A stretch of 64,000 bases of DNA, from contig JAABRF010000005.1 in the NCBI GenBank assembly GCA_011391075.1, positions 1 through 64,000 of the forward strand, in the 5' to 3' direction. Shown here piece by piece: positions 10,992-34,780 of the stretch. The number at the start of each line of letters is the position of its first letter. Positions within the stretch are counted from its first letter, which is position 1. The translations under genes were made by a program, and so were the position numbers. This stretch comes from Flavobacteriia bacterium (GTDB lineage Bacteria; Bacteroidota; Bacteroidia; Flavobacteriales; Flavobacteriaceae). The notes beneath the pieces are model-generated. The model worked only from the letters and a program-made list of their open reading frames with translations. It made no database searches and was not told the origin of the DNA.

Positions 10992-11140
10992 TTAGAATCT
11001 TTGATTTTTACAAAAATAATTAATTTTTAATATAATAAGCATTTGATAAGTTTGGAATGAGAAATCAAAATTATTCAAGATGAATGGGATGTTAAAATTT
11101 AAAAAATTACATCGAAAAATGACATATATCAATCCCATTG

Positions 11141-11265: not shown

Positions 11266-14200
11266 ATGTACACGGCTATTGCATTTCCCTTTGAGATGCA
11301 CATAGAAACACGTGTTCCCATGAAAAAATCAGAATTCCTTTTAAAAGAAGCCAGAGAATTAGTAATCTCAAGACCTTCATTAGTTGAAAAAAAATCAAAC
11401 CGACGCCAATTTTTACGGGTTTTTGGATTGGGAGCTTTGGCTGTCAATCCGGCCATTGGAGCAGTTAAAAAAATGACCAACGAGCCATTTTTGGTTGATT
11501 TGGAAGAAAATCAACTCAAAGTTTGGCGTAATGGTGAATTGGCTTGGGAAATTTCTGACCGTTATTTTGGTTCAGATACTGCCATTTCTATTACTCAAAT
11601 TGAAAATGGATGGCAATTTCAAATTTCAAAACTAAGTTTTAAAGGTACTCAATTTACTTTCAACCTTCAAGGCTCGATTTTGCAAGCCTTATCTCAATGG
11701 TTGATAAAATTAGAAAGCCCTGAATTACAATGGAATAGTGAAATGGATTTTGTTGACTTTTTGGATGGCATCAAACCGCTTTCTGCTGAAGCCCAGATAC
11801 AATCAGAAATGCTCCAATTCCAAAATGGCGGACATGTTTCAGTCCATGGCTCTGTTCTGACTACAATCAGTCCTGATTGGAGTATGGAGTTTACAAAAGA
11901 AAAAGCCATTCAGTTGGATTTGAATGGAAAAACTTTACAAACCCATACTTTAAAAATTATACCCGGATTTGACGATACACTACCCTTTTATAACGAAAAT
12001 GCTAAGGGTAGCTTATTACAAATGTCCACTTTTACACCTTGGCAAGATTTTATATCTTCCTATACTTATAAAGGTAAATCATTGGTAACTGGCACCGAAT
12101 TAAATCCAACTTTACAAATTCTTTCAGGTGATACTGAAACCAATCATTTGCAACTCCTTTGGACGGATGGTTTGCTTCACAAAATGACTGTAAAAGGGGT
12201 ATTGAACGAATCGATCGCTTTACAAGATTATTTCTTTTTTCAAGATTTAAATGATGCAGCATCCAACTTCTATTTATCAGCTCGATTAGAGCCTAAAGGT
12301 CAATGGATTTCAAACACAATGGGTTCTTTTCAATTGACTAGAAATCAAGATATTCCCGATTTTGAAGTGTTTGGACTAGGACTAGTCGTTCAAAATCAAA
12401 TTTTGAAACCTAGATTAAAAGCATTTCATCCCAAAATGAACGGTGGATTGAGTACTACTTCCATTTTTCAAAATGCTCCTATGGTCAATATTTCAGACCA
12501 TAAAAACAATTTTGACGAACTTAAATCCCAATATTTCTTTGAACCTCCGCAAGATACAACGCGTAATAAAACTGTCATCAGAGGACGAACCAATCTCCCT
12601 ATAAAAACCGATCCAAAAACGAAAGAAGACGATAAAAAAAATGATGTCAAAGTTATTAGGGAAGTAAAAGTTGAAAAAGAAGTAGTTAATCCTAAAGAGG
12701 TTAAAATTGAGACTCAAAAAGATCTCATCATAGAAAAAATCCCGGAAATTCAAGTTGAAAATAATCGAAAAATCAACTTTATTCCTCGCCTTCCGATGAA
12801 TATCAGGATTTTGCGACCTGATGATTTGGTATGGTTGGAAGTCCAATTCAAAAATTTTAAATTTGTCAGCAGTAGAACTGGCGGAACTACTGTGGAATTA
12901 GAAGATAAAACCAAAGTTGGCACGCTTATCTATTCTTTTCCAACACAACACACCTTGGAGGAAGCCTATTTTGAAACAACTCCAATGGATACCGCTGGTA
13001 ATCAAGAAATCAAACTTCCCGCCCGACATATTCGCGCTAAAAAAAGTAGGCTGGTTTATGAATATGAAACGGGAAAACCCGGTTTTGAACTCAATATTCA
13101 CGAATTATTGGATTGGAGTAAATTTACACTCAAAGTTCACCCAAGAGCTTATATCAAATTACCGACAGTTATCACAAAACCTGTAGGAAAACCTATTACT
13201 GCCTCCAAAGCAAATTTAATAAAATCGGATAATCTAACCACTAAAAACAATTTTTATCAAACCCAAATCGTAGAGAAATCCAAATACAAAGTAGATAAAC
13301 TTTCTGTGTATGACAAAGTTGTAGTTGATGCTGTTTTACCATTGAGCATTACTCCTACCTTGGAACCTTCCTTTAATTTGAATTATTTCAAATTACCACT
13401 AAAAGTTGAACCTATTCCAGATACGCATACTTGTATCGAAGCACCGGCTTTAATGTACATCTCACCCAATCAAGTAAATGATTTTTCACACAAAATTGAT
13501 GTTGAGTATAGAGATACTGAAGAAATTCCGGTCGTTAAAACCAATACAACCCTCAAACAAGTCAAGCCTTTACAAGTAAGATTGAATCCTATTTATACCA
13601 ACAAAGGTCAGATTACAGAATTGTGGCATACTTCATTAGGAATCAAGCTTAAAAACAACAAAATTGCTTATCACGGCATGGATAAGCTGAAAACCATACG
13701 TGCTTTGTGGGCTTTTGATGCCAATAGCGATTACAAAGGTTGTGCTTTGATAGATGAACCATTCCAAGCTTCTTTGGATGCCAGCGACCGACATAAATTA
13801 GTACATACTACTTCCAATTATGAAATTCAAGGCTTTACTCCTTTTCCGGTTCCGGTTAAAAAATTAATGCTTACCGGATTGGGCTCTTATCTGGACTGGC
13901 ATGCTTTCTTTGATGTCCCAACACCAGTAGACAACCATTTGAATATCATTGAATGGGAACATTTGGCTACATTGGGTCGAGACCATTATGTAAAAGTGGT
14001 GCGAGAAGGATATTTATTCCCTGTTGGACATAGAGCAGCTTTGGTTAAAGTTACTGAAAGAAAGTTTGATGCAAGTACCAAAGCCGCTGTCAATAAAATG
14101 CGAATGTACATCGTCATTTTAGAAAAAGAAGTTTTGTATAAACGCAACGATCCCACCAATAAATTTATCAAATTTCCATTTCAAGCAGTCAAAATTGAAA

Positions 14201-16281
14201 ACGACTATACACCCAATATTAATAAACCAGAACAAATTGCGTTAAATGAAAATAATTTAAATAAAATAAAAGCCATAAAAATTGGGGTAGATTGTCCTCA
14301 AAAACCAGGTCGAAGTTCTACTTATAATTTCTACATTAATGTAAACAGCAAACCTTTCTTATTTGATATTACAGCAACTGACAAAGAAGGAAACGAACAC
14401 CGTATTCAAATGCCTTTAGCATTCGTAGAAAACTTAACCGGCCGTACTAAATCTATGGTCGAAAAGATGGCTGCAGATTACAATCCTAAGAAAAACCTCA
14501 ATGATATTCTTTTCAATGGTCAACAAGTTGCCTATGCAGATTGTTTAGTAGATGGTGACACAACTTTCGAAACGAAGAAATTGAGTTTTGGAGGTCAATA
14601 TTATGCGGCTAGCGGTGAAGGAGATTTGAAATTCCATCCAATGATGCAATCAGCCGATGTTTACATCAAAGCGGTTGATGAACTTACAGGTAAACGTGAA
14701 CCTGCTTCCATTCAATTGGAAGACGACAACAATCAAGGAATGGTATTTGCCAAAGTAAGTGGAGCCGAAGTTGATTTTAGTGGCGGAAGTGATAAATCGG
14801 GTGGATTTATGATGCCCAATATGTCTATTTCAGGTTTGAGTAAATTACAAGGGCCTATTGGAGGTAAAGTGGAAGACATGATGAACCTCAACTTTATCCC
14901 TACCGAATTTTTCAAAATTGTAGGCGATTTGCCCATGGCTAAAATCTTTGGGGTTATCGACATCATCAGTTTACTTTTGGACAAACCCAATATTGGTAGT
15001 TCTTTTCAAGATTTGATTGCTAAAATTAAAAAATTCAAAGAAGAAATCGAAAAGATAAAAGACGATATTCTATTACTTCAACAAAAAGCCAAAGAAACCG
15101 GCGAAATACTCACATCTAGTATAGAAGAAAAGAAAGCATTATTGAAGGCAAAAGCAGTGGAAATTATGAATACACTGAATAATCAGATGCCTAAAGTACC
15201 CAACCTAAAAACTTGGTTTACCACCGAAGCTTTCTTTGCTGAATACAAATGGATTCCGGAATTCAGTAGCAGTGATATCAGTTTGTTTGGAGGTTTACTC
15301 AAATTTCACGTAGATAAGCCCAAAGAAGCCCTGCAAATCACTACTACTTTTTCAAAACCATTTGACGGCTTGACTTCTGCAACCCTAGATGGAAAAGCAG
15401 AATTATCCAAATTCAACATTGAAATAAAAGATGCTCTAAAAGTAAACTTCGACTCCATGAAGTTTATCAGTGGTAGCAGTAAAAAAACAGATGTCAAAGT
15501 AGATTTAAACAAATCTAAACCCATTGAATTTGTCGGGGCCTTGAGTTTTGTAAACAACTTACAAAATCTCATTCCAAGTACCGGTTTTTCTGATGATGGT
15601 CCTTATGTAAATCTAACAATGGCAGGCGTCAAAGCCGGATTTGACATCAGTATTCCAGATGTAGAAGTTGGGGTCTTTTCTTTGTCCAATATGACTTTGG
15701 GAGCCTATATCAACTTGCCTTTTAATGGAGATGAACTCACCATGGGATTCAATTTCTGTACCCGAGAAAATCCATTTTTATTGACTGTATCAGGATTCGG
15801 TGGAGGCGGTTACTTCTTGATGATCACTACTTTGAAAGGATTGAAATCTGTAGAAGCTGCTTTTGAATTTGGAGCTTCAGTTTCCATCAATTTGGGTGTA
15901 GCTTCGGGAGGTGTAAGTATTATGGGAGGTTTCTATTTCAAATACGAAATGGTAGCTGAAAAAGAAACCATCAATTTGACAGGTTACATCCGTATCAACG
16001 GTCGATTGTCTATCCTGGGGATCATTTCTGTTTCTATGGAATTCTACTTGGCCCTCAATGCAGTTTATGAAACTGTACAATTGGGTAATGGTAGTAGCGA
16101 ATTGAAAGTAACCAAGATGGAAGGTGTTGCCACTTTGAAAGTGAAGATAGAAATTTTATTCTTTAGCAAAACTGTATCGGTTAGTGTCAGAAGAGAATTT
16201 GCAGGTGCTGATGCCGATCCAACCTTTGCTCAAATGGTATTACCTGAAGACTGGAATGAATACTGCTTAGCATTTGCCTAA
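11266..16281 (+). CDS. Giant uncharacterised protein 1 with Tat-like N-terminus (~1,650 aa)
   Basis: Up to 1,671 residues; I know no named function. The ATG at 11320 (MKKSEFLLKEAREL) is a likelier start than 11266. About 28 residues into that form is NRRQFLRVFGLGALAV, matching a Tat motif, though its hydrophobic stretch is short. The body is beta-rich with few cysteines. A Lys/Glu/Val linker lies at about 450-500. A core at about 905-930 contains RDHYVKVVREGYLFPVGHR followed by ALVKVTERKF. A predicted helical coiled-coil hairpin spans about 1248-1310 (KIKKFKEEIEKIKDDI). The C-terminal about 230 residues form a Gly-rich beta region (NPFLLTVSGFGGGGYF; SILGIISVSMEFYLAL), ending DWNEYCLAFA. No T9SS sorting domain, transmembrane segment or enzyme motif is obvious. 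The next giant gene follows after 59 bp on the same strand, so the two very likely act together. Confidence 0.9.
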   Translation: MYTAIAFPFEMHIETRVPMKKSEFLLKEARELVISRPSLVEKKSNRRQFLRVFGLGALAVNPAIGAVKKMTNEPFLVDLEENQLKVWRNGELAWEISDRYFGSDTAISITQIENGWQFQISKLSFKGTQFTFNLQGSILQALSQWLIKLESPELQWNSEMDFVDFLDGIKPLSAEAQIQSEMLQFQNGGHVSVHGSVLTTISPDWSMEFTKEKAIQLDLNGKTLQTHTLKIIPGFDDTLPFYNENAKGSLLQMSTFTPWQDFISSYTYKGKSLVTGTELNPTLQILSGDTETNHLQLLWTDGLLHKMTVKGVLNESIALQDYFFFQDLNDAASNFYLSARLEPKGQWISNTMGSFQLTRNQDIPDFEVFGLGLVVQNQILKPRLKAFHPKMNGGLSTTSIFQNAPMVNISDHKNNFDELKSQYFFEPPQDTTRNKTVIRGRTNLPIKTDPKTKEDDKKNDVKVIREVKVEKEVVNPKEVKIETQKDLIIEKIPEIQVENNRKINFIPRLPMNIRILRPDDLVWLEVQFKNFKFVSSRTGGTTVELEDKTKVGTLIYSFPTQHTLEEAYFETTPMDTAGNQEIKLPARHIRAKKSRLVYEYETGKPGFELNIHELLDWSKFTLKVHPRAYIKLPTVITKPVGKPITASKANLIKSDNLTTKNNFYQTQIVEKSKYKVDKLSVYDKVVVDAVLPLSITPTLEPSFNLNYFKLPLKVEPIPDTHTCIEAPALMYISPNQVNDFSHKIDVEYRDTEEIPVVKTNTTLKQVKPLQVRLNPIYTNKGQITELWHTSLGIKLKNNKIAYHGMDKLKTIRALWAFDANSDYKGCALIDEPFQASLDASDRHKLVHTTSNYEIQGFTPFPVPVKKLMLTGLGSYLDWHAFFDVPTPVDNHLNIIEWEHLATLGRDHYVKVVREGYLFPVGHRAALVKVTERKFDASTKAAVNKMRMYIVILEKEVLYKRNDPTNKFIKFPFQAVKIENDYTPNINKPEQIALNENNLNKIKAIKIGVDCPQKPGRSSTYNFYINVNSKPFLFDITATDKEGNEHRIQMPLAFVENLTGRTKSMVEKMAADYNPKKNLNDILFNGQQVAYADCLVDGDTTFETKKLSFGGQYYAASGEGDLKFHPMMQSADVYIKAVDELTGKREPASIQLEDDNNQGMVFAKVSGAEVDFSGGSDKSGGFMMPNMSISGLSKLQGPIGGKVEDMMNLNFIPTEFFKIVGDLPMAKIFGVIDIISLLLDKPNIGSSFQDLIAKIKKFKEEIEKIKDDILLLQQKAKETGEILTSSIEEKKALLKAKAVEIMNTLNNQMPKVPNLKTWFTTEAFFAEYKWIPEFSSSDISLFGGLLKFHVDKPKEALQITTTFSKPFDGLTSATLDGKAELSKFNIEIKDALKVNFDSMKFISGSSKKTDVKVDLNKSKPIEFVGALSFVNNLQNLIPSTGFSDDGPYVNLTMAGVKAGFDISIPDVEVGVFSLSNMTLGAYINLPFNGDELTMGFNFCTRENPFLLTVSGFGGGGYFLMITTLKGLKSVEAAFEFGASVSINLGVASGGVSIMGGFYFKYEMVAEKETINLTGYIRINGRLSILGIISVSMEFYLALNAVYETVQLGNGSSELKVTKMEGVATLKVKIEILFFSKTVSVSVRREFAGADADPTFAQMVLPEDWNEYCLAFA

Positions 16282-16303
16282 CCCAAGAGGTAAAATTTAA
16301 CCA

Positions 16304-16328
16304 AAATCGTAAATCGTAAATCGTAAAT
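16304..16328 (+). repeat. 7-bp tandem repeat (AAATCGT x3) in the giant-gene gap
   Basis: Three perfect copies of aaatcgt plus aaat lie between the two giant genes, just before the second ATG. No hairpin or other signal is evident in this 59-bp gap. Confidence 0.7.
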
Positions 16329-16340
16329 AATTTAACGGTT

Positions 16341-19300
16341 ATGTCACAAGAACTCATTTTCACCACATTACCCAACCAACGCATCAGTTTGGATGGAAAA
16401 GCATTTTTAAAATTGTCTGTCTTTTGTTCCGCTAGACTTACTTCGGCTCAAAATACTACCTTACAATCTTTTCCCGATGTATTGAGTTGGCCTGAATTAA
16501 TTGCCTCAGCCGATTATAAATTCAAATTCGGCACTTTGGAATTGGAAGCCCAATTGCTTACCAATGCAATGGATCCCGATTTCTTTGGGCATATTTTTCA
16601 CAATCAAATCAGAGTAAAATCTTACAAACAAGATAATTTTACCGAAAAAAACATTCATTCGGTTCCTATCGTGCATATCAAAGATTTTATTTTTAATAAT
16701 TATCAAAAATTGGCCATTGATAGTCCTACTAAATTGGTTACTGCCGATAAATTTATAGATTCGGCACATTTTGGAGCCATCAATAGGATCAAACTCAACG
16801 AACTAGAAATCAATAAAGTCAACAATGACACTGCCCCTAGAGCATTAAAGGTGAAAACTTTAGCAACTCAGGATGTAGCCGTTGACAAACAACTCAAAAC
16901 CGATTTACGCAAAAATAAATTCGTCAAGTTTTCAGCTAAAATGAATCCTGAAACAGATTTTGCTCAATTACGCAAGTTTCATCGTATTGACGAACAGATG
17001 AAACCTTTTAAACCTATCGTTATTCAAAAACCTGAATTTGAATTTCACGATATTATTTCCATAGCAACCAATTACCCACAAATTGCTAGAAGATTAGGTT
17101 TTATCTTGGATTTTCTAGTGCCGTTTGATGGAACTATTCCAGTTACAAATGTGGTAACACTCATCACTAATGACTTACAATTTACCAACACAGATACTGT
17201 AGTTTCTGCTCCACCAACTGCCTATCAACTCACTTCCAAAGGTTTTTATGCTGCCGACAAACCAAATTCTGTATTCAAACAAGGTTTTGTGCGCATTAAT
17301 ACGCCCGAATTTACGGTTTTACAAATGGATGCCGATGGTGCAGCAATCAAAACCCAACAAATCACCGAAAGCAAAACCAAAGAAGTGGCCGAATTCTACA
17401 AAGTTCGCTCCGATTTAAAAATGGTTATGCGCAAAGGAAAAACCAATGCTAGAGGTCAACATCGCCTCAAAGATGTGAAAAGAGCACAACCACCAGTAGA
17501 AGAAGGTTTGCCAGCCATGCGTAGTGCCGGTATTGCCATTGTTAAAAATGGAATGGCCGAACACGTTTTCAAAAAGTTTGAAATCGCCAAAACTTTACAA
17601 CCCAAATTATTGAATTTGGATTTGGCTTTAAAAATGCAACCTAAAGCCAACTTGGAATTGAGTTCCAAAAAACTCAAAGTAGCTCAAACCTTAACACCAA
17701 TGCGTCATGATCGTCTGAAAATGGCACAGATGGCGCCTATTAAACTTATTTATCCAGCCGAGACTTTGTATTCTGATGACATTGTTCAAGGCTATAGAAT
17801 GGATATTGCATATGAGGAAAACCCTAATCAATGGTTTTCTTTACATCAAAGGAAAAATGAGTACAAGTGGTATGACAATCAAAATAAAGCACACGATATT
17901 GACATTCCTGAAACAGACGAAGGATTTATTGAACTGGCAATGACCGAAAATCCCGATGATCCCAATGATGTATTTATTTCCGAAACACTTGCCCGCTGGG
18001 AAGGTTGGAGTTTGAGTGTCACACGTCCCGGATTTGCCATTAATGAAGCTGCCGATGATCCGTCACCCAACAAACGCGATTTTGTAAATACGGATAAAAA
18101 TGTGGAAATGAAAAAGTATGCATTCGATCCCAATTTGGAATTTAGAATGAATATGCAGTCCAAAAGTATCCCCGGAACTTTACCCCGATTGAGATTTGGA
18201 AAAGATTATCGGGTTAGAGTTCGGACTGTAGATTTGGCGGGCAATTCCGTGCCTTTGGATTTCCAACCTGAAACCACAACCGATAGTATTCGTACCAACA
18301 TTCGCTATATGCGCTATGAACCATTGTCTTCTCCAATTGTTTTGGTAGGAAATGAATTGAAAGATGGAGAATTTTTGGAAAGTATGGTGATCCGTAGTAA
18401 TTACGATCAAAGTGCCAATGATTATGAAAATTTGAATTTAGACGAAAAAGATTTCCCCGATTATTCCCAACGATATTTGTTGCCTCCCAAAAACAGTCAA
18501 ATGATAGCTGAAACTCATGGGAAATTTGAAAAAGCTATGGGCAATAATCCGTTGATAGCTCAACAAATCTACAAGCTGATTACCGACCATGAAGGCTTGT
18601 ACAAACGTCCTGAAAAAACGGTTGAAAAAGTATATCAACCAAATGAAGTAGAGATCATTTATCTCCCTGATCCAATGGCTGCCGGCGTTGCATTATTCGT
18701 TTCCGAAGGATTTGAACATACGCATACACAAGAATTTAGTGCCAAAATGTTTAGTTTTTTCAGTGGTGAAGAACTGTCTTCCGATAAAACAAACACAGTA
18801 GAAATTCCAGATGATTGGTACAATGCCAAACATTTGCGTATTCGCTTGGAAGAAGGTGAATTGGGAAGTAAATGGAATCCATCCGAACGTATTTTTACAG
18901 TATTTTTACCCAAAGGATATCGTACCCGCATCAAATACAGTACTTTTTGGAGAGAAGCCGATTTCAAAAAAATGTCTGCTCTTTGGCAAATGATCAAGGA
19001 AAAAAATCCAAGTAATTTGACCGAATTGGAAAAAGTAGTCAGAAATGGTCAACATTGGATGATGAGTCCACCTCGAGAATTTGAATTGGTTCATGCTGTA
19101 CAACAACCCGTAGAAATACCTGAAATTAAAAACATCATTCCCGATAGAGATTTTGGTGAAACTTTTGTGGATCTACACACCAAATTTAAAGTTCATGGAG
19201 AAAGCACCGAAAAGGTGAGTATTCAAGCCAAATGGACTGAACCTATAGATGATGGTATATCTGTAGAAATCAACGAAGCACAAGCAGGTAGAAATATGAT

Positions 19301-20816
19301 TTCAGACATTGATATTCAATACAATGACGACACTTTAACCTTTGGAACCATTCCTGAACCAGTAATGATTCCGGCTCACAACCAACTGAAGAATATGGAA
19401 AAAATTCAAGCCATTCCATTGCAAAAACATCAGTTGAGAACTGAAGCCGAATTTAAGAAAGATCCTCAACCGGGTGCAGTCAAACTCAATAAAACCTATC
19501 AATTACAAAATACCAAATACCAAAAAGTATTGGCAGATAAAAATGCTGCTCCCAAAAACTTGGTCAATACCGTCAAATTTGATATTGCTGAAAGCAAATA
19601 CGACTTTGTAAAAATGGTAGAATTACGCAAAGAACCATTGGCGCATCATTTTGGCGATACCAAACACCGTTGGGTAGATTATCAAGTAGTAGGAAACACA
19701 AGGTATGAGGAATATTTTACTAAAATTCTCAAAAAAAATCCAAAATTATCCATTACACGAGAAAGCAAATGGGTCGAAAAAATTAACATTTTAAGTGCTG
19801 CAAGGCCTATTTTACCGGAAATCGATTATGTAATACCTACTTTTGAATGGCGTAAAACCCAAAACGATGACACCATGCGTCACCGTAGAATGGGTGGCGG
19901 ATTGAGAATCTATATCAAACGGCCTTGGTATAGTACCGGTGTCGATGAAATGCTCGGCGTGATTTTACCGCCCAAACCAAGCGGTAATGTTACCATGACG
20001 ATGGTTGGAACCAATACTTCACCTTATACGGATTATTATACCCATTGGGCTATAGATCCTATTTTATATTCTGTTCAAACTGATAAAGCTTCACCACAAC
20101 CGGAAGATTTTAGACTCAATCCGGTTTTGGACGATCAATTACAATATCCGGGTCAAGAAAACTTAAAAGCACAAGTAGCTGCTTATCCCGTATTTTTTGA
20201 CGAGGATAAGCAAATGTGGTATGCCGATATTGCCATAGATCCTAAAAATGTGTATTTCCCATTTGTGAAATTGGCTATTGCACGCTACCAACCATTTTCT
20301 GTTAAAAAAGAAAATCAAGATGTATGCCTGTCTCCTGTAGTATTATCAACCTTTGTACAATTAGTTCCCGAGCGTCAAACGACAGTACAATTTATTGATA
20401 AAAACAAATCAAAACTCAAAATTACAGTAGAAGGCACTATTTTTAATGAGAGATTTGCCAAATGGGGAAATCGTTCATTTGTGCGTATTTCGTTTGTGGA
20501 TGCCTTGCAAGCCAAACCGATTGAAGGAGTAATAGACAGCGGAAAAAATAGTCGAAATTTGGTAGAGGAAGGTTTGGAAATTTTGTTGGCTCAAGGTAAA
20601 AATGTAACCAATAATAAGTATCTAATTACACAAGAAATCTCAATTCCTACTATTTACAAGGAAAAACCTTATCAAATATTGATTGAGGAATTTGAACGCG
20701 GACCATTAAAAACTGCAGGAGATGAAATAGATGCAAAATATGCATCTCAGATGGTACAAAACGAAGAAACCGATCGTTTGATTTATGCAGATGTCTTTAC
20801 GGTGGGAGAAAAATAA
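16341..20816 (+). CDS. Giant uncharacterised protein 2 (1,491 aa), partner of the preceding gene
   Basis: A 1,491-residue protein with no signal peptide (MSQELIFTTLPNQRISLDGK) and no transmembrane segment. No named function is recognised. It is beta-rich. A fibronectin/Ig-like phrase LRFGKDYRVRVRTVDLAGNS lies at about 616-635. VEIIYLPDPMAAGVALF follows at about 770, and PEIDYVIPTFEWRK at about 1155. A distinctive C-terminal block has IKRPWYSTGVDEMLGVILPP (about 1195), THWAIDPILYS (about 1235), WYADIAIDPKNVYFPFVKLA (about 1290) and LSPVVLSTFVQLVPER (about 1330). From memory, similar blocks occur in very large hypothetical proteins of actinomycetes and cyanobacteria, which would make this a widespread orphan family; this was not checked. 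The region 190-480 is rich in Lys/Gln/Met. The gene follows its giant partner and is followed by a strong terminator, so the pair forms a complete two-gene unit. Confidence 0.9.
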   Translation: MSQELIFTTLPNQRISLDGKAFLKLSVFCSARLTSAQNTTLQSFPDVLSWPELIASADYKFKFGTLELEAQLLTNAMDPDFFGHIFHNQIRVKSYKQDNFTEKNIHSVPIVHIKDFIFNNYQKLAIDSPTKLVTADKFIDSAHFGAINRIKLNELEINKVNNDTAPRALKVKTLATQDVAVDKQLKTDLRKNKFVKFSAKMNPETDFAQLRKFHRIDEQMKPFKPIVIQKPEFEFHDIISIATNYPQIARRLGFILDFLVPFDGTIPVTNVVTLITNDLQFTNTDTVVSAPPTAYQLTSKGFYAADKPNSVFKQGFVRINTPEFTVLQMDADGAAIKTQQITESKTKEVAEFYKVRSDLKMVMRKGKTNARGQHRLKDVKRAQPPVEEGLPAMRSAGIAIVKNGMAEHVFKKFEIAKTLQPKLLNLDLALKMQPKANLELSSKKLKVAQTLTPMRHDRLKMAQMAPIKLIYPAETLYSDDIVQGYRMDIAYEENPNQWFSLHQRKNEYKWYDNQNKAHDIDIPETDEGFIELAMTENPDDPNDVFISETLARWEGWSLSVTRPGFAINEAADDPSPNKRDFVNTDKNVEMKKYAFDPNLEFRMNMQSKSIPGTLPRLRFGKDYRVRVRTVDLAGNSVPLDFQPETTTDSIRTNIRYMRYEPLSSPIVLVGNELKDGEFLESMVIRSNYDQSANDYENLNLDEKDFPDYSQRYLLPPKNSQMIAETHGKFEKAMGNNPLIAQQIYKLITDHEGLYKRPEKTVEKVYQPNEVEIIYLPDPMAAGVALFVSEGFEHTHTQEFSAKMFSFFSGEELSSDKTNTVEIPDDWYNAKHLRIRLEEGELGSKWNPSERIFTVFLPKGYRTRIKYSTFWREADFKKMSALWQMIKEKNPSNLTELEKVVRNGQHWMMSPPREFELVHAVQQPVEIPEIKNIIPDRDFGETFVDLHTKFKVHGESTEKVSIQAKWTEPIDDGISVEINEAQAGRNMISDIDIQYNDDTLTFGTIPEPVMIPAHNQLKNMEKIQAIPLQKHQLRTEAEFKKDPQPGAVKLNKTYQLQNTKYQKVLADKNAAPKNLVNTVKFDIAESKYDFVKMVELRKEPLAHHFGDTKHRWVDYQVVGNTRYEEYFTKILKKNPKLSITRESKWVEKINILSAARPILPEIDYVIPTFEWRKTQNDDTMRHRRMGGGLRIYIKRPWYSTGVDEMLGVILPPKPSGNVTMTMVGTNTSPYTDYYTHWAIDPILYSVQTDKASPQPEDFRLNPVLDDQLQYPGQENLKAQVAAYPVFFDEDKQMWYADIAIDPKNVYFPFVKLAIARYQPFSVKKENQDVCLSPVVLSTFVQLVPERQTTVQFIDKNKSKLKITVEGTIFNERFAKWGNRSFVRISFVDALQAKPIEGVIDSGKNSRNLVEEGLEILLAQGKNVTNNKYLITQEISIPTIYKEKPYQILIEEFERGPLKTAGDEIDAKYASQMVQNEETDRLIYADVFTVGEK

Positions 20817-20843: not shown

Positions 20844-20875
20844 GAGGTTGTCTAAAATTAAAAAAAGACAACCTC
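20844..20875. terminator. Bidirectional terminator between giant gene 2 and trpS
   Basis: A perfect 10-bp stem (gaggttgtct / agacaacctc) around an A-rich 12-nt loop, with T/A-rich flanks, lies between two convergent genes. Confidence 0.85.
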
Positions 20876-20881
20876 TATTTT

Positions 20882-21850
20882 TTAATATCCAAGTTTTGCT
20901 CTAACTCTTTTCAACACAGTTTGAGCAACAATACGTGCTTTTTTGGCACCAACTTCCAAAGCCTCATCAATCTCCGATTTGTGCGCCATGTAATATTGAT
21001 AACGCGAACGGACTTCAGCATATTTTTCCAAAATTAATTCGTAAAAAGCTTGTTTGGCATGTCCATATCCATAGTTGCCAGCTAAATATTGACTTCTCAT
21101 CACTTCGGTTTGCTCTGGAGAAGCGATGAGTTTGTATAAGTTGAAAAGATTACAAGTATCAGGATTTTTGGGATCTTCAAGTGGAGTACTATCCGTTTTG
21201 ATTTGCATGATTTGTTTACGCAATTCTTTATCGCTCAAAAATATATTGATGATGTTCCCTTTGGATTTGCTCATTTTTTCTCCATCAGTACCAGGCACAT
21301 ACATCGTGTTATCTTGTATTTTGGCTTGAGGTGGTACTAATATTTGACCCATTTTAAAATTTATCCTATCAGCTACATCTCTGGCCATTTCAAGGTGTTG
21401 CAATTGATCTTTCCCAACAGGTACAATTTCAGCATCATATAGTAAAATATCAGCAGCCATAAGCATGGGATAAGAAAACAATCCCGCATTGACATCACTC
21501 AAACGGTCAGCCTTATCTTTAAACGAATGAGCCAATGTCAAACGTTGATACGGAAAAAAACAACTCAAATACCAAGCCAACTCAGTAACTTCAGGAATGT
21601 CACTTTGGCGATAAAAAACAGTTTTATGAATATCTAAACCGGCAGCAAGCCAAGTAGCAGCTGTACTGTATGTATTTTCTCTCAATTCATCCCCATCTTT
21701 TATTTGAGTCAAGGAATGCATATCAGCAATAAATAGAAAAGATTCATTCTGAGGCTGATTTGCCAATTGAATTGCAGGAAAAATTGCTCCTAATAGATTC
21801 CCTAAATGGGGTGTACCGGTACTTTGAACGCCTGTAAGTATTCTGGACAT
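20882..21850 (-). CDS. trpS: Tryptophan--tRNA ligase
   Basis: A 322-residue class I aminoacyl-tRNA synthetase of the usual TrpRS length. The N-terminus MSRILTGVQSTGTPHLGNLLGA carries the HIGH-equivalent (PHLGN), and the KMSKS loop is GEKMSKSKGNII at about 192-203. Specificity is supported by FFPYQRLTLAHSFKDKAD and PVGKDQLQHLEMARDVA. It charges tRNA-Trp in the cytoplasm. It is a single-gene unit with its own candidate promoter. Confidence 0.97.
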   Translation of the reverse strand: MSRILTGVQSTGTPHLGNLLGAIFPAIQLANQPQNESFLFIADMHSLTQIKDGDELRENTYSTAATWLAAGLDIHKTVFYRQSDIPEVTELAWYLSCFFPYQRLTLAHSFKDKADRLSDVNAGLFSYPMLMAADILLYDAEIVPVGKDQLQHLEMARDVADRINFKMGQILVPPQAKIQDNTMYVPGTDGEKMSKSKGNIINIFLSDKELRKQIMQIKTDSTPLEDPKNPDTCNLFNLYKLIASPEQTEVMRSQYLAGNYGYGHAKQAFYELILEKYAEVRSRYQYYMAHKSEIDEALEVGAKKARIVAQTVLKRVRAKLGY

Positions 21851-22178: not shown

Positions 22179-23324
22179 ATGAACAAATTTAGATTTTTTA
22201 GCGGCATTATCATTATTGCTCTAAGTTTTGTTTTTATTCAATGTACCAGTGAACCAATTGCAGGTCCGGAAGGCCCAGCAGGACAAGATGGCGAAAATGG
22301 TATAGACGGCGGAAATGTATGCTTAACATGTCATAACGTGGATTACAAAGTAGTTCAACCGGAAACGTATGCGCTTTCAGGTCACGGAACTGGTACTGCT
22401 CACATATCACATGGTGGCACATCTTGTGCCGCTTGTCATACCAATGGTGGTTACATCAACACAGTTTATAGTGAAACCTTAACAGCATCCTCTGCTTTCC
22501 CTGAAGAAAGAATCGGTTGCACCACTTGTCACTCGGGTGGTCATGCTTCTGCTGGTTTAGCTATCAGTGGTACTGATGCTGCTTTGAGAAGTGTTTCAGA
22601 ATACACTTTGAATCAAAAAGACGCCAATGGAAATGATGTAAACGTTCATTTTGGAAATGCTAGTAACAATTGTATTCATTGTCACCAACCAAGAAGAAAC
22701 GCAACTTCTGCGTTAACTCCCAATACATCTGGCAATATATCCATCAGTTCTACTTTTGGTCCTCATTATGGAAACCAAACCGCTTTGTTGGAGGGAATGT
22801 TTGGAGCAGAAGTTACCGGAGCAACTGTATATCCAACTAAAAGCTCAGCTGTTCATAGAACTGGATCTTCTTGTGCCAAATGTCATATGGGCCCTAAAGA
22901 AGGAAACACCGGAAATCACACTATGAAACCCAATTTAAATACTTGTAAAACTTGTCATACTGGTGCTGGTATAGTAAACTACGATATCAATGCTGGACAA
23001 ACTAAAATCAAAAATTTGATGATGGAATTGGCTGAAGAAATCGTAAGAGTAAGATCAACAGACTTTAGAATCGCCAATTATACAGGGACTAAACCATTTA
23101 CATCTCCAAATATTTTCACGGATGCAACATACTCTACCAACCAATTAACCATTATGTCGGGCACACTAAATTATGCCTCTACTGATGACGTTAAAGTTAG
23201 AGTTGCAAAAGCTTATTGGAATTGGAGATATTTATATCAAGATCATTCTTATGGATTACACAATCCAAAATATGCAGAAGCACTGTTGAAAAATTCGATA
23301 GCAAACTTAAAACTTATTCCTTAA
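22179..23324 (+). CDS. Hexaheme c-type cytochrome lipoprotein with collagen-like stalk
   Basis: A 381-residue secreted multiheme cytochrome. The signal peptide ends in a lipobox-like FVFIQC (about residue 22). A short collagen-like Gly-X-X run follows (GPEGPAGQDGENGIDGG, about 28-44). Six CxxCH haem sites are visible: CLTCH (about 47), CAACH (82), CTTCH (113), CIHCH (164), CAKCH (231) and CKTCH (255). Several further His residues could be distal ligands. The C-terminus has HSYGLHNPKYAEALL, a phrase typical of multiheme cytochromes. It probably sits on the outer membrane or periplasmic surface and carries electrons. It heads the respiratory cluster. The nitrite-reductase NrfA CxxCK site is absent, so it is not NrfA. 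Confidence 0.9.
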   Translation: MNKFRFFSGIIIIALSFVFIQCTSEPIAGPEGPAGQDGENGIDGGNVCLTCHNVDYKVVQPETYALSGHGTGTAHISHGGTSCAACHTNGGYINTVYSETLTASSAFPEERIGCTTCHSGGHASAGLAISGTDAALRSVSEYTLNQKDANGNDVNVHFGNASNNCIHCHQPRRNATSALTPNTSGNISISSTFGPHYGNQTALLEGMFGAEVTGATVYPTKSSAVHRTGSSCAKCHMGPKEGNTGNHTMKPNLNTCKTCHTGAGIVNYDINAGQTKIKNLMMELAEEIVRVRSTDFRIANYTGTKPFTSPNIFTDATYSTNQLTIMSGTLNYASTDDVKVRVAKAYWNWRYLYQDHSYGLHNPKYAEALLKNSIANLKLIP

Positions 23325-23340
23325 ACTTACTTTGAATTAA

Positions 23341-23372
23341 AAAACATTCAGGAACAAACCTGAACGTTTTTA
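23341..23372 (+). terminator. Hairpin with T-run between the two cytochrome lipoproteins
   Basis: Imperfect inverted repeat aacattcagg / cctgaacgtt with TTTTT directly after. It may partly terminate after the hexaheme gene or set expression ratios in the operon. Confidence 0.5.
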
Positions 23373-23412
23373 CTAAAGTTATTAGGATTAATCATATCAA
23401 ACTCATTTAATA

Positions 23413-23790
23413 ATGAAGAAAGTTATTCAATTTTTATTGATTTGCGTCGTTGGGTTTTCTTTAAAATCGTGTTATTATGACGAGACCCTTCCTGCTCAGG
23501 AAATTCCGGATGGAACAGTGGTAACTTATAAAGCAGATATCGCTCCTATTCTCACTGATTGTACTACTTGCCATGGAGGCGGTGTTAATCCTGATTTAAG
23601 AAACACTCAACAAGCATACAACAATCTGTTTCCAAATTATGTAACAGTTGGTAATCCTACCAATAGTAAACTCTATTACAATGCTCCCGGAAATTCAAAC
23701 AGTGTTCATGCTAACGTTGGTTTTAACTTAGATGACACTCAATTGGCATACATTAAATATTGGATTAACCACGATGCTGAATACGAATAA
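23413..23790 (+). CDS. Small monoheme c-type cytochrome lipoprotein
   Basis: A 125-residue protein with signal peptide and lipobox (VGFSLKSCYYDE, Cys about 20) and one CxxCH site (DCTTCHGGG, about residue 49). Sequence after the haem (LRNTQQAYNNLF, then KLYYNAPG and AYIKYWINHDAEYE) resembles the cytochrome-like domain found beside hydrolase or barrel genes in Bacteroidota. It may relay electrons at a membrane surface. It lies between the hexaheme cytochrome and the barrel gene, with a 16-bp gap to the latter. Confidence 0.85.
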   Translation: MKKVIQFLLICVVGFSLKSCYYDETLPAQEIPDGTVVTYKADIAPILTDCTTCHGGGVNPDLRNTQQAYNNLFPNYVTVGNPTNSKLYYNAPGNSNSVHANVGFNLDDTQLAYIKYWINHDAEYE

Positions 23791-23806
23791 GATAAACACT
23801 AGACTC

Positions 23807-24670
23807 ATGAAAGATTTAAAAATTATTATTTGGATTCTACTATTGCTACCTGTGATAGGTTTTTCACAAGAAGAATTAATTGATTCTATCGCAACAGAAG
23901 AACCAACTGTAGTTGAAAACAAATTGGAAAGAACTGCTTTTGAAAGTTCACAGATAATTGACAATAATACCAGTGTAACTTTTGTAAAAGGCACTTTAGA
24001 AATCGTAATGCAACATCGTTTTGGATTGGTTGATGGAGGAACAAATGATGTTTTTGGATTATGGGCTCCTACCAACATTCGTTTGGCTGTTGCCTACAGT
24101 TTGACAGATAGAATTACTGTAGGTGTAGGAACGACCAAAGACAGTCGTTTGCAAGATTTTAATGCCAAAGTGGCCTTGTTAAGACAAACCCGTAGCGGTT
24201 CAATGCCCGTAAATGTTACCTACTACGGTAATATGGTAGTAGATGCCAGAACTAAAGACAATTTTAACAACATTCAAGATCGGTATTCTTTCTTCAATCA
24301 ACTGATAATCTCCAGAAGAATGAGCCCAAAATTATCTTTTCAAATGGCCCCAAGTGTAGCCCACATCAACTTGGTAGAACCTACACTTCCCAATGACTTA
24401 TTTGCCTTATCCTTGGGTGGAAGATACAAAATAAGTTCTCAAACTTGTTTGTTAATTGATTATACGCATCCTTTTGCTTCCTACGATAACAGTCCAAAAC
24501 CAGGATTTAGTGTAGGAGCCGAATTCAATACAAGTGCACACGCATTTCAAATTTATTTCACAAATTACAAAGGAATCGTAAACCAAAGAAGTCAATATTA
24601 CAATCAAAACAACTTCTTTGAAGGTGATTTTATGCTAGGTTTCACCATCACTCGTAGATATAATTTTTAA
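23807..24670 (+). CDS. DUF5777-like outer-membrane beta-barrel protein
   Basis: A 287-residue protein when started at the ATG at 23807 (MKDLKIIIWILLLLPVIGFSQ), which gives a clean signal peptide. An in-frame upstream ATG at 23732 would overlap the previous gene. The body has alternating beta strands (RLAVAYSLTDRITVGVGTT; LSLGGRYKISSQTCLLIDYT) and ends in FMLGFTITRRYNF, with the terminal aromatic typical of barrels. It matches what I know of DUF5777. Next to a multiheme and a monoheme cytochrome lipoprotein it could act as the pore of a porin-cytochrome conduit; this is inference from neighbours. Confidence 0.8.
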   Translation: MKDLKIIIWILLLLPVIGFSQEELIDSIATEEPTVVENKLERTAFESSQIIDNNTSVTFVKGTLEIVMQHRFGLVDGGTNDVFGLWAPTNIRLAVAYSLTDRITVGVGTTKDSRLQDFNAKVALLRQTRSGSMPVNVTYYGNMVVDARTKDNFNNIQDRYSFFNQLIISRRMSPKLSFQMAPSVAHINLVEPTLPNDLFALSLGGRYKISSQTCLLIDYTHPFASYDNSPKPGFSVGAEFNTSAHAFQIYFTNYKGIVNQRSQYYNQNNFFEGDFMLGFTITRRYNF

Positions 24671-24689
24671 AAAAACAAAAACTATTTTA

Positions 24690-24740
24690 AGTAACATATC
24701 TCATCAGTGATTTCATTGTATGATATGTTACTTTTTTTTA
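24690..24740 (+). terminator. Terminator-like hairpin within the respiratory cluster
   Basis: An 11-bp perfect stem (agtaacatatc / gatatgttact, arms 24690-24700 and 24722-24732) is followed by eight T residues. It separates the cytochrome/barrel genes from the Fe-S/NrfD genes, so these may be two transcription units or a partially attenuated operon. Confidence 0.75.
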
Positions 24741-24768
24741 CCCAAAACAGGAAAAAACATAATCAATC

Positions 24769-25737
24769 ATGGAAGATCAAAACACTAATTCAAGAAGAAA
24801 ATTTTTAAAACTTGGTTTAATTTCCGGTGTAACTGCTATGGCTGGCGCTTCGCTTGTTTCTTGTTCATCTGAAGAAAAAAAACCGGAATCAGGTGAAAAA
24901 ATGAGATTGCTAACACCAGATGGAAAAATCGTCGAAGTGGATGCATCGAATATAAACAAATATCCCGAAGCATTGATTACTCCTGCTGAATCAAGAAAAG
25001 GCATCCCAGATAGAAAATTTGTTATGGTGATTGATTTAGCCAAATGTAGCAATGCTCGTACTTGTGTAGAAAGTTGTCAAAAAGCTCACAATTTGGATTC
25101 AGATCAAGAGTTTATGAAAATCCAACTCATTCAAAACAATGAAAATACAGAACCTTATTGGTTTCCTAAACCCTGTTATCATTGCGATGAACCACCTTGT
25201 GTAACCGTTTGCCCAACGGGTGCAACATTTAAAAGAGAAGACAATATAGTACTTATTGACAATCAACGTTGTATAGGCTGTAAATTCTGCATGACTAGTT
25301 GTCCATACTCTGCTCGTCAATTTAATTGGGGACATAAAGCCAAATATGACAAAAAAGATCAACCTTATTCACCTGAAACTAGTGTTCCCGGCGCAGAAGG
25401 TACAGTGGTAAAATGTGATTTTTGCCCAGATTTATTAAGACAGGGACTTTTACCTCATTGTGCCAAAGCGTGTCCAAACGGGGTAATCTACTTTGGAGAT
25501 AAAAATGAAGATATCGTGACTAATGGGGAAGAATCATTCCAATTTTCAAAATTAATTACTGATAGAGGTGGATATAGACATTTGGAACATTTGGGAACAA
25601 AACCAAACGTTTATTATCTACCACCAGTTGACAAACAATATCCAGTTGAAAGAGGATTTGAAAACGAAGAGGAAATAAATGAACGTTATAAAAATGTTCC
25701 CTATGTAAAAGAATTGAAAAAACAAGGTAAAATATAA
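24769..25737 (+). CDS. Tat-exported Fe-S electron-transfer subunit (NrfC/DmsB/HybA-like)
   Basis: A 322-residue ferredoxin-type subunit. The N-terminus has a Tat motif, SRRKFLKLGLISG, and ends in a possible lipobox (ASLVSCSSEE). Four cysteine groups follow: CSNARTCVESC (about 90-100), CYHCDEPPCVTVCP (about 135-148), CIGCKFCMTSCP (about 167-178) and CDFCPDLL with CAKACP (about 218-240). In the first group the usual second Cys of CxxCxxCxxxC is Ala, so that cluster lacks a normal ligand. Such subunits pass electrons between an NrfD-type quinone protein and partner redox proteins. The next gene is that NrfD partner, 16 bp downstream. No molybdopterin subunit is nearby. Confidence 0.93.
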   Translation: MEDQNTNSRRKFLKLGLISGVTAMAGASLVSCSSEEKKPESGEKMRLLTPDGKIVEVDASNINKYPEALITPAESRKGIPDRKFVMVIDLAKCSNARTCVESCQKAHNLDSDQEFMKIQLIQNNENTEPYWFPKPCYHCDEPPCVTVCPTGATFKREDNIVLIDNQRCIGCKFCMTSCPYSARQFNWGHKAKYDKKDQPYSPETSVPGAEGTVVKCDFCPDLLRQGLLPHCAKACPNGVIYFGDKNEDIVTNGEESFQFSKLITDRGGYRHLEHLGTKPNVYYLPPVDKQYPVERGFENEEEINERYKNVPYVKELKKQGKI

Positions 25738-25753
25738 CTAAATACGCTTAAAG

Positions 25754-27109
25754 ATGGATATTATTAACAGAAAAAAAGCATTAGTTGAAGAGTTTTCTCC
25801 TATGTTGGAAAAATACAGTAAACTAACCAAATTATGGATAGCTTTTCTCATTGCTGTAATCATAATCGGTATGGTAGCTTTTGTGCTTCAAGTGATGTAT
25901 GGACATGAAATTACCGGAATGAGAGATAATGTAGTTTGGGGTATTTATATTATAAACTTTATCTTTTTTGTTGGAATTAGTTATTCCGGAGCTTTTATTT
26001 CAGGAATACTTCATTTCTTTAAAACACCGTGGAAAAACTCCATTTCAAGAATTGTAGAGATCATGACGGTAATTGCAATGGTAATTGGTCCAGTTTTTAT
26101 ATTATTATGTATTGGCAGATTGGATAGACTACATTATTTATTTATTTATCCTAGAATTCAGTCTCCAATTACATGGGATATCATTGCTGTAATAACCGAT
26201 TTAATTGCTTGTTTCTTATATTTATACCTAACTTTCATTCCTGATTTAGCCATATTGAGAGATAATAGTGAAAATTTAAATTTACCCAAATGGCAAAAAA
26301 AGATGTATAAATTTTTAGCTATTAGATATCAAGATACACCTTCTCAACGTCACAGATTGCACAAAATTACCAGAACTATGTCCACAATTGTTATCGTTTT
26401 GGCAATCGTTGCATATTCTGTTTTGGCATGGATTTTTAGTCTCACCTTACAACCAGGCTGGAATAGTACCATTTTCGCTCCCAATTTTATTATTGCCGGA
26501 CTATATTCTGGGATTAGTGTTATAATCATATCAATGTATTTCATTAGAAGACAATTTAAATTGGAACATTATATATTCCAAAAACATTTTGTCATAGCGG
26601 GTATCATTTTACAAATACTAGCACTTCTTTTCGGTTATTTTACTTTTACTGATTATTTTTCTAAATGGTTTAGCACAAAGATCGACGATACAATACTGTT
26701 GAATAGTTTATTTTCTAGATATTTTATTGAATTTATTTTAGCCAATTATATTGGAATTTTAGTTCCTGTTTTAGTTATTTTCTTTAAAAAACTCAGAACG
26801 GTAAAAATGATTACGTTTGCAGCTGTAATAGCGCTTTTAGGATTATGGCTCAATCGATATCTATTGGTTGTACCATCTCTAGAAAATCCATTTTTACCCA
26901 TTCAAGAAACAGGTCCTGAATACATACATTATTCAGCAACTTGGATTGAATACTCATTAAGTTTTACTGGAATTGCAGCATTTTTACTCATATTTACTTT
27001 ATTGGCAAAGTTTGTTCCAATTATTCCCATGTCAGGTATAATTGAAAACGAAGAGTTTAAAGCTAAGAGAATTCAAAAAAAGGATTCACCTGACGAATTC
27101 GATGTTTAG
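25754..27109 (+). CDS. NrfD/PsrC-family quinone-interacting membrane protein
   Basis: A 451-residue integral membrane protein with about nine or ten hydrophobic segments (for example LWIAFLIAVIIIGMVAFVL at about 27-45). NrfD-family features include VVWGIYIINFIFFVGISYSGAFISGILHF (about 60-90, split by a turn) and the C-terminal segments. The family oxidises or reduces quinol without haem and pairs with an Fe-S subunit, here the immediately upstream gene. It is likely the menaquinol entry or exit point of the cluster. Confidence 0.9.
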   Translation: MDIINRKKALVEEFSPMLEKYSKLTKLWIAFLIAVIIIGMVAFVLQVMYGHEITGMRDNVVWGIYIINFIFFVGISYSGAFISGILHFFKTPWKNSISRIVEIMTVIAMVIGPVFILLCIGRLDRLHYLFIYPRIQSPITWDIIAVITDLIACFLYLYLTFIPDLAILRDNSENLNLPKWQKKMYKFLAIRYQDTPSQRHRLHKITRTMSTIVIVLAIVAYSVLAWIFSLTLQPGWNSTIFAPNFIIAGLYSGISVIIISMYFIRRQFKLEHYIFQKHFVIAGIILQILALLFGYFTFTDYFSKWFSTKIDDTILLNSLFSRYFIEFILANYIGILVPVLVIFFKKLRTVKMITFAAVIALLGLWLNRYLLVVPSLENPFLPIQETGPEYIHYSATWIEYSLSFTGIAAFLLIFTLLAKFVPIIPMSGIIENEEFKAKRIQKKDSPDEFDV

Positions 27110-34504: not shown

Positions 34505-34780
34505 TTAAAATTTAGTGGTACGTTTGATAGGCCCAGTATATTCTTCAACATTCTCTTTTAACTTATCTACTTCAGCCTTGATATCTTTGGAAATATTGGA
34601 CACTGATGCATCAATATCCTTTTTATAAGCCGATTGATTGATTTCTCGTTTCACTTCATTGGTAGCATCCCGCAATTGACGCATACCTTTACCTAAACCT
34701 CTTGCTAATTCGGGTACTTTATCAGCTCCAAATAACATGACTACAACCAAAAGGATAAAAAATATTTCTGAACCGCCCAT
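34505..34780 (-). CDS. tatA: Sec-independent protein translocase TatA/E
   Basis: A 91-residue protein starting at the ATG at 34780 (MGGSEIFFILLVVVMLFGAD), which gives the canonical TatA layout: short N-terminus, one helix, FG hinge, and the amphipathic helix KVPELARGLGKGMRQLRDA, then a charged tail. An upstream in-frame ATG at 34828 would add 16 unneeded residues. TatA forms the export pore for folded proteins carrying twin-arginine signals. Two candidate substrates lie in this window: the Fe-S protein at 24769 and giant protein 1. It is coupled to the PAP2 gene downstream. tatC is not in the window. Confidence 0.93.
   Translation of the reverse strand: MGGSEIFFILLVVVMLFGADKVPELARGLGKGMRQLRDATNEVKREINQSAYKKDIDASVSNISKDIKAEVDKLKENVEEYTGPIKRTTKF

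What the first reader, a model, noticed from the sequence alone, without database searches (positions are those of the whole stretch)
11266..20816. Two-gene module of giant uncharacterised proteins with a Tat-like leader on the first
Two same-strand genes of about 1,650 and 1,491 codons, 59 bp apart, form an isolated unit between housekeeping genes, with a promoter-like element before and a terminator after. Neither has a recognised enzyme, toxin, T9SS or transporter signature, yet both show well-ordered, repeated beta phrases. Protein 1 has NRRQFLRV, a central GYLFPVGHR core, a helical hairpin and a Gly-rich C-terminus. Protein 2 has RPWYSTG, THWAIDP and YFPFVKLAIARYQP. I recall similar phrases in giant hypothetical proteins of actinomycetes and cyanobacteria, which would make this a widely spread orphan system. 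A structure or sheath built from both proteins is one possibility; no function can be claimed.
Basis: partly seen in the sequence, partly recalled or inferred. Interest (0 to 1): 0.85.

Follow-up and report, generated by a model that had tools for sequence, protein, structure and literature searches.

The report
Giant two-protein Tat-export gene pair
Two adjacent genes encode a pair of giant proteins with no known relatives that travel together across very different bacteria, and the first usually carries a tag for export in folded form, which would make it larger than the cargo that export route is recorded as handling.

Summary
P1 (11266-16281) and P2 (16341-20816) are tandem, 59 bp apart, and match nothing in Pfam, NCBIfam, PADLOC or the PDB, with only one sub-threshold coiled-coil match in PHROGs. 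The same pair, always P1 then P2, occurs in other Bacteroidota (18 of 395 genomes) and on plasmids of Streptomyces, Rhizobiaceae, Ruegeria, Cupriavidus and Diaphorobacter. In 91 genomes searched for both, 12 have both, 79 neither, none only one.

A twin-arginine leader is present on 19 of 29 P1 N-termini, from three phyla; no P2 has an export signal. Leader-bearing P1 is 116-363 kDa (188 here); a review puts Tat cargo at up to 150 kDa.

In five other Bacteroidota families the pair goes with a predicted outer-membrane barrel and an RCC1 protein whose N-terminus weakly resembles TANFOR, the trafficking domain of a polymorphic-toxin class. In one family the barrel is in 12 of 12 pair-positive and 1 of 11 pair-negative genomes.

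Best explanation: an obligate P1-P2 complex, Tat-exported on P1's leader, working outside the inner membrane, probably in surface contact or antagonism. The last step is inference. Structure prediction failed (pLDDT 28 and 31). The window's own genus lacks the barrel module in the assemblies held.

The parts
11007..11036 (+). promoter-like TTTACA-N18-TATAAT upstream of P1 (weak)
   Evidence: 11 of 12 consensus positions, but the scan as a whole is not above shuffles
11266..16281 (+). P1, giant protein, 1671 aa from the first ATG (about 1653 aa from the likely start at 11320), 188 kDa
   Evidence: homologues
11320..11463 (+). P1 Tat-type leader: n-region, twin arginine (R46-R47 at 11401-11406) in NRRQFLRV, then a weakly hydrophobic stretch
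   Evidence: (S/T/N)RRxxL-like motif followed by a hydrophobic stretch in 19 of 29 P1 N-termini from Bacteroidota, Streptomyces and Alphaproteobacteria; TatA and TatC are encoded in this genome
11464..12813 (+). P1 N-terminal domain (about residues 67-516); missing or very short in the Betaproteobacteria and Streptomyces versions
12814..14949 (+). P1 conserved core (residues 517-1228), with the R-x-D-D start and GYLFPVGHR
14950..15252 (+). P1 helical insert (residues 1229-1329), 41 to 1042 aa long across the family
   Evidence: helical or coiled-coil proteins are its only weak PDB matches
15253..16278 (+). P1 C-terminal amphipathic beta domain (residues 1330-1671), ending W-x-x-Y-C-x-A-F-A
   Evidence: best-conserved part of P1, strongest alternating hydrophobicity of either protein
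16341..20816 (+). P2, giant protein, 1491 aa, 172 kDa, no export signal
18174..18251 (+). P2 invariant-rich stretch around GTLPRLRFGKDYRVRVRTVDLAGNSVP (from residue 612), reads like a fibronectin-III strand pair
   Evidence: conserved columns; the FN3 likeness is from memory and no Pfam match supports it
20844..20883 (.). terminator-like hairpin with T run between P2 and the convergent tRNA synthetase gene
   Evidence: read from the sequence; its loop is longer than the automatic scan allows
34628..34777 (-). tatA of the same genome, unlinked export component
   Evidence: PF02416 match over the cut-off

Best explanation
P1 and P2 are the two obligate subunits of one giant complex. P2, which has no signal, binds P1 in the cytoplasm. 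The folded or partly folded assembly is taken across the inner membrane by Tat on P1's leader, with P2 as a hitchhiker. Outside that membrane P1's amphipathic beta C-terminal domain, set off by a helical arm of variable length, makes the contact with a membrane, lipid or partner. In several Bacteroidota families a dedicated outer-membrane barrel and a TANFOR-like/RCC1 protein carry or anchor the complex at the cell surface. The most likely role is cell-surface contact, either antagonism of neighbours or adhesion. Shown: the obligate pairing and order, the widely shared leader, the barrel linkage. Inferred: physical complex, hitchhiking, surface location, role.
For: Pairing: P1 lies immediately upstream of P2 on the same strand in every locus where both fit on the contig, in Bacteroidota, Actinomycetota, Alpha- and Betaproteobacteria. 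12 genomes have both, 79 neither, 0 only one. Gene overlaps or gaps run from -4 to 59 nt in the eight loci measured. P1 and P2 distance matrices correlate at r=0.95 and share 11 of 15 tree splits. Export: a Tat-type leader on 19 of 29 P1 N-termini in three phyla, and none on P2. TatC occurs in all 20 pair-carrying genomes tested. On a Sinorhizobium plasmid a tatA gene follows P2 by 49 nt. Surface: the barrel and TANFOR-like/RCC1 genes adjoin the pair in four Bacteroidota families in different gene orders, and occur in a fifth. In family f39 the barrel is in 12 of 12 pair-positive against 1 of 11 pair-negative genomes (Fisher p about 1e-5). The exception encodes another large TANFOR-like protein beside the barrel, and barrel paralogues elsewhere sit by 2814-4021-codon TANFOR-like ORFs. 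TANFOR proteins are a polymorphic-toxin class with mostly Sec signals (PMC7073777).
Against: Ten P1 N-termini lack any leader, including all f32 Bacteroidota, which still have TatC, so Tat export cannot be universal. The barrel and TANFOR-like genes are absent from the window's genus, though those assemblies are only 68-84% complete, and were not seen in the loci outside Bacteroidota. TANFOR likeness is below the family cut-off even for the giant paralogues (E 0.02-0.03), and the RCC1 adaptors give no TANFOR match. No immunity-like gene or variable toxin tip was seen; both C-termini are conserved. The masses exceed the Tat cargo size quoted in PMC6708511. The f39 genomes are related, so their co-occurrence is not 23 independent observations. 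No structure or experiment.
Confidence: 0.45

Rival explanations
1. A cytoplasmic two-subunit assembly, for example a giant scaffold, storage body or compartment-like particle. The twin-arginine segment is then an accessory of some lineages.
For: No leader on 10 P1 N-termini; P2 never has a signal; the core P1+P2 without leader is complete in Betaproteobacteria and in one Streptomyces.
Against: The leader recurs in three phyla with a hydrophobic stretch and often an A-x-A-like end. One locus carries its own tatA. In most leader-bearing Bacteroidota outside the window's genus the barrel module is linked; in leaderless f32 it is not found.
Confidence: 0.2
2. A toxin or antagonism system delivered at the cell surface: P1-P2 is the delivered or membrane-damaging agent, with P1's amphipathic beta domain inserting into a target membrane.
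For: The barrel module is shared with TANFOR-like giant proteins, and TANFOR proteins are polymorphic toxins (PMC7073777). Patchy spread, partly on conjugative plasmids. Lipase or protease genes lie near some rhizobial and roseobacter pairs. Strong beta amphipathicity.
Against: No toxin domain over a cut-off in any library, no variable C-terminus, no shared immunity-like neighbour. The nearby lipases and proteases differ between loci.
Confidence: 0.25
3. A passive structural or adhesive surface layer or fibre built from P1 and P2.
For: Invariant positions are mainly Gly, Pro, Trp, Arg and Asp rather than an evident catalytic set. Large beta-rich proteins with a helical arm of variable length.
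Against: No internal repeats, which are usual in layer and fibre proteins. No anchor or sorting motif on either protein.
Confidence: 0.25
4. A lipid- or glycan-handling device of the cell envelope, with P1's C-terminal beta meander forming a hydrophobic groove.
For: Conserved alternating hydrophobic pattern over about 300 residues.
Against: No match to known groove families; the structure model was unusable; present in Streptomyces, which have no outer membrane.
Confidence: 0.1

Closest known systems
Tat hitchhiker complexes, e.g. PaoABC of E. coli (PMC4273604)
   Same: one subunit has the twin-arginine leader and its partners have none; Tat takes folded cargo
   Different: P1 alone is 188 kDa here (116-363 kDa across leader-bearing full-length relatives) and P1+P2 about 360 kDa; no redox enzyme family is matched
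TANFOR polymorphic toxins of Bacteroidetes (PMC7073777)
   Same: a TANFOR-like domain protein and its barrel partner are linked to the pair in several families; very large secreted proteins
   Different: the similarity is below threshold and lies in the neighbour, not in P1 or P2; conserved C-termini, no toxin domain; the leader is Tat-type, whereas about 87% of TANFOR proteins have predicted Sec signals
Type IX secretion substrates
   Same: giant extracytoplasmic proteins in Bacteroidota
   Different: no Por_Secre_tail domain on P1 or P2; the pair also occurs in phyla without T9SS

Membership tests
Tat substrate | N-terminal (S/T)RRxFLK-like motif followed by a hydrophobic stretch | tested here: met
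   NRRQFLRV in P1 and equivalents in 19 of 29 P1 N-termini
Tat substrate | Tat translocase in the same genome | tested here: met
   TatA and TatC
Tat substrate | Tat-dependent export of a folded protein | not testable with these tools
   needs an export assay
Tat hitchhiker complex | partner encoded alongside, without a signal of its own | tested here: met
   P2 is next to P1 and starts without a signal
Tat hitchhiker complex | partners bind before export | not testable with these tools
   no complex prediction or biochemistry available
TANFOR polymorphic toxin | N-terminal TANFOR domain on P1 or P2 | tested here: not met
   no match in P1 or P2; only giant paralogues of the neighbour reach E 0.02-0.03
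TANFOR polymorphic toxin | variable C-terminal toxin domain with immunity gene | tested here: not met
   conserved C-termini; no shared immunity-like neighbour
T9SS substrate | C-terminal sorting domain | tested here: not met
   no Por_Secre_tail in P1 or P2
Phage tail or virion protein | match to phage families or presence in phage genomes | tested here: not met
   no P2 match in phages; no P1 or P2 relative in viral contigs; PHROGs only one sub-threshold match in the helical insert
Known anti-phage defence system | match to a PADLOC model | tested here: not met
   none for window P1 or P2; one rhizobial P1 matches ZorA and others only in its helical region

The most novel reading that the evidence does not exclude
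A new cross-phylum class of giant two-subunit machines exported folded through Tat, with cargo of 350 to over 500 kDa, well past the roughly 150 kDa usually quoted. In some outer-membrane bacteria it is passed on through a dedicated barrel shared with TANFOR-like giant proteins.
Probability: 0.25. Interest if true: 0.85.

Novelty: categorically new. Interest (0 to 1): 0.7.

Why it matters
The pair is conserved from Bacteroidota to Streptomyces and rhizobia, yet nothing in Pfam, NCBIfam, PADLOC or the PDB describes it. If P1 really crosses by Tat, it gives a direct test of how large a folded cargo Tat can move; the Sinorhizobium and Ruegeria versions (331 and 363 kDa) would be extreme cases. 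The barrel plus TANFOR-like module could also bear on how TANFOR-class proteins cross the outer membrane, which their discoverers left open. 'Categorically new' here refers to the protein families; the mechanism is unproven.

Tried and rejected
AlphaFold2 on P1 509-1671 and P2 292-1491 with 4-6 related sequences gave mean pLDDT 28 and 31, so no fold search was made and no fold claim rests on the models. Profile searches of the PDB gave only helical or coiled-coil matches to P1's helical insert. P1 and P2 are not detectably related to each other. Viral contigs gave no relatives with the patterns used, and a tblastn of P2 against phage genomes gave none. An empty-site test failed: both flanking genes exist in most relatives, but where they are on one contig they lie far apart. 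Base composition of P1 and P2 (36-37% GC) is close to the window's 34.7%, so recent transfer into this genus is not shown. The weak alpha-xenorhabdolysin B match to P1 (E 0.018, score 14.5 against a cut-off of 40) covers only the helical insert and was rejected as a coiled-coil resemblance. Lipase, protease and similar neighbours were rejected as system parts because they are not shared between loci. A tatA gene next to the pair was found in one locus only.
Full report
WHAT IS THERE. P1 and P2 are real ORFs of 1671 and 1491 codons, on one strand, 59 bp apart, between an Exo_endo_phos gene and a tRNA synthetase gene. Neither has a match over a cut-off in Pfam or NCBIfam, PADLOC or PHROGs, or by profile in the PDB apart from coiled-coil noise. 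The P1 start is probably Met19 (11320), where the close homologue L002 begins. A terminator hairpin follows P2. The promoter is only suggestive.

HOW FAR IT SPREADS. tblastn of P2 against plasmids found relatives in Streptomyces, Rhizobium, Cupriavidus, Diaphorobacter, Ensifer, Sinorhizobium and Bradyrhizobium. P1 adds Ruegeria, Agrobacterium and Paraburkholderia. Among 395 Bacteroidota genomes, 18 have P2. Among the window's 60 nearest relatives only members of its own genus have it. The closest named relative outside the window's own species is a sulfidic-cave 'Polaribacter' MAG at 75% identity in P2; a Flavobacteriaceae MAG is at 97%. No P2 relative was found in phages, and none of either protein in viral contigs. 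The spread is patchy and crosses phyla. In the trees the Streptomyces pairs group with one Bacteroidota family, and the Betaproteobacteria branch inside the Bacteroidota, as expected if the unit moves between lineages.

ALWAYS A PAIR. In every locus where both genes fit on the contig P1 is directly upstream of P2. All 81 f32 genomes and the 10 f39 genomes with handles below G450 had also been searched for P2: 12 have both, 79 neither, none one alone. Distances of P1 and P2 between loci correlate at r=0.95 (0 of 2000 permutations reach it), and 11 of 15 splits are shared; shared host ancestry contributes to this. Exceptions look like decay or assembly breaks: a 511-aa P2 remnant in Bradyrhizobium, a split P1 in L010 and L019, a split P2 in L005 and L064. 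The Ensifer, Rhizobium sp. Pop5 and Paraburkholderia fragments were not resolved.

ANATOMY OF P1. A Tat-type leader, an N-terminal domain, a conserved core (517-1228), a helical insert (1229-1329) and a C-terminal beta domain (1330-1671). The helical insert is about 41 aa in f32 Bacteroidota, about 100 here, about 275 in Betaproteobacteria and 919-1042 in four Alphaproteobacteria. The C-terminal domain has the strongest conserved alternating hydrophobicity of either protein and ends in W-x-x-Y-C-x-A-F-A or close variants in most members. P2 is conserved along most of its length; its invariant residues are mainly Gly, Pro, Trp, Arg and Asp, with no evident catalytic set. Neither protein has internal repeats.

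EXPORT. The leader is present in the window, L002, Streptomyces L009, four Alphaproteobacteria (L014-L017) and twelve further Bacteroidota loci: 19 of 29. It is missing in L010-L013, L018, L019 and the four f32 loci read. P2 never has one. TatA and TatC are present in this genome, and TatC in all 20 pair-carrying genomes tested, so the f32 absence is not due to loss of Tat. In Sinorhizobium a tatA gene follows P2 directly. A review quotes Tat cargo up to 150 kDa (PMC6708511); P1 is 188 kDa here and 331, 329, 363 and 334 kDa in L014-L017, and a complete P2 adds 143-280 kDa depending on the locus. A leader on one subunit and none on its obligate partner is the hitchhiker pattern (PaoABC, PMC4273604).

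LINK TO A SURFACE MODULE. Clustering neighbours across loci found two recurrent genes: a predicted outer-membrane barrel of about 640 aa (signal peptide, beta pattern, terminal aromatic; my reading) and a protein with an N-terminal domain of about 280 aa followed in most by RCC1 repeats. They adjoin the pair in families f36, f39, f42 and f59 in different orders and orientations; in f69 they lie on another short contig. In f39 the long barrel match (E below 1e-160) is in all 12 pair-positive genomes and 1 of 11 pair-negative ones (Fisher p about 1e-5). That one, G457, has the barrel followed by a different large protein with the same N-terminal domain. Elsewhere in these genomes barrel paralogues sit by ORFs of 2814-4021 codons that begin with this domain. 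Two of those reach TANFOR (TIGR02542) at E 0.02-0.03, far below its cut-off, so TANFOR is a lead, not a membership. TANFOR proteins are polymorphic toxins whose outer-membrane route is unproven (PMC7073777). The window's genus and f32 have neither barrel nor full adaptor; the window's genome is only 68% complete.

JUDGEMENT. Shown: an obligate, ordered, cross-phylum pair of unknown giant proteins; a recurrent Tat-type leader on P1 only; a lineage-wide link to a barrel module. Inferred, in falling order of confidence: the two proteins bind; P1 takes P2 through Tat; the complex acts outside the inner membrane; in some Bacteroidota the barrel module brings it to the surface; its role is contact, adhesion or antagonism.

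Noticed in passing
L014 15244-15411: A plasmid-borne tatA gene directly follows P2 in Sinorhizobium meliloti, the only such case among the loci.
   Followed up: yes
L070, L071, L072, L073: In four pair-carrying genomes, ORFs of 2814 to 4021 codons start with the TANFOR-like domain of the pair's neighbour, each with a barrel paralogue close by.
   Followed up: partly
L077 10592-17506: Pair-negative f39 genome with the barrel, a 502-codon adaptor and a different large TANFOR-like ORF running off the contig end, as if the barrel module had another client.
   Followed up: partly
L052 2764-5694 and 17687-19324: Next to the pair and its barrel: a 977-codon protein with a PD40 propeller trace and an AAA ATPase. 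Unclear whether they belong.
   Followed up: no
window 22179-27109: Redox cluster: cytochrome c552-like multihaem protein, DUF5777 barrel, 4Fe-4S protein and NrfD-like subunit, in a relative of a sulfidic-cave MAG.
   Followed up: no
L020 13608-15143: A 511-aa P2 remnant without P1 among conjugation genes of a Bradyrhizobium plasmid, followed by an M23 peptidase gene.
   Followed up: no
L010 19490-22003 and L016 6813-8615, 27658-28254: Patatin-like lipase, zinc phospholipase C and M35 protease genes near alphaproteobacterial pairs; not shared between loci.
   Followed up: partly
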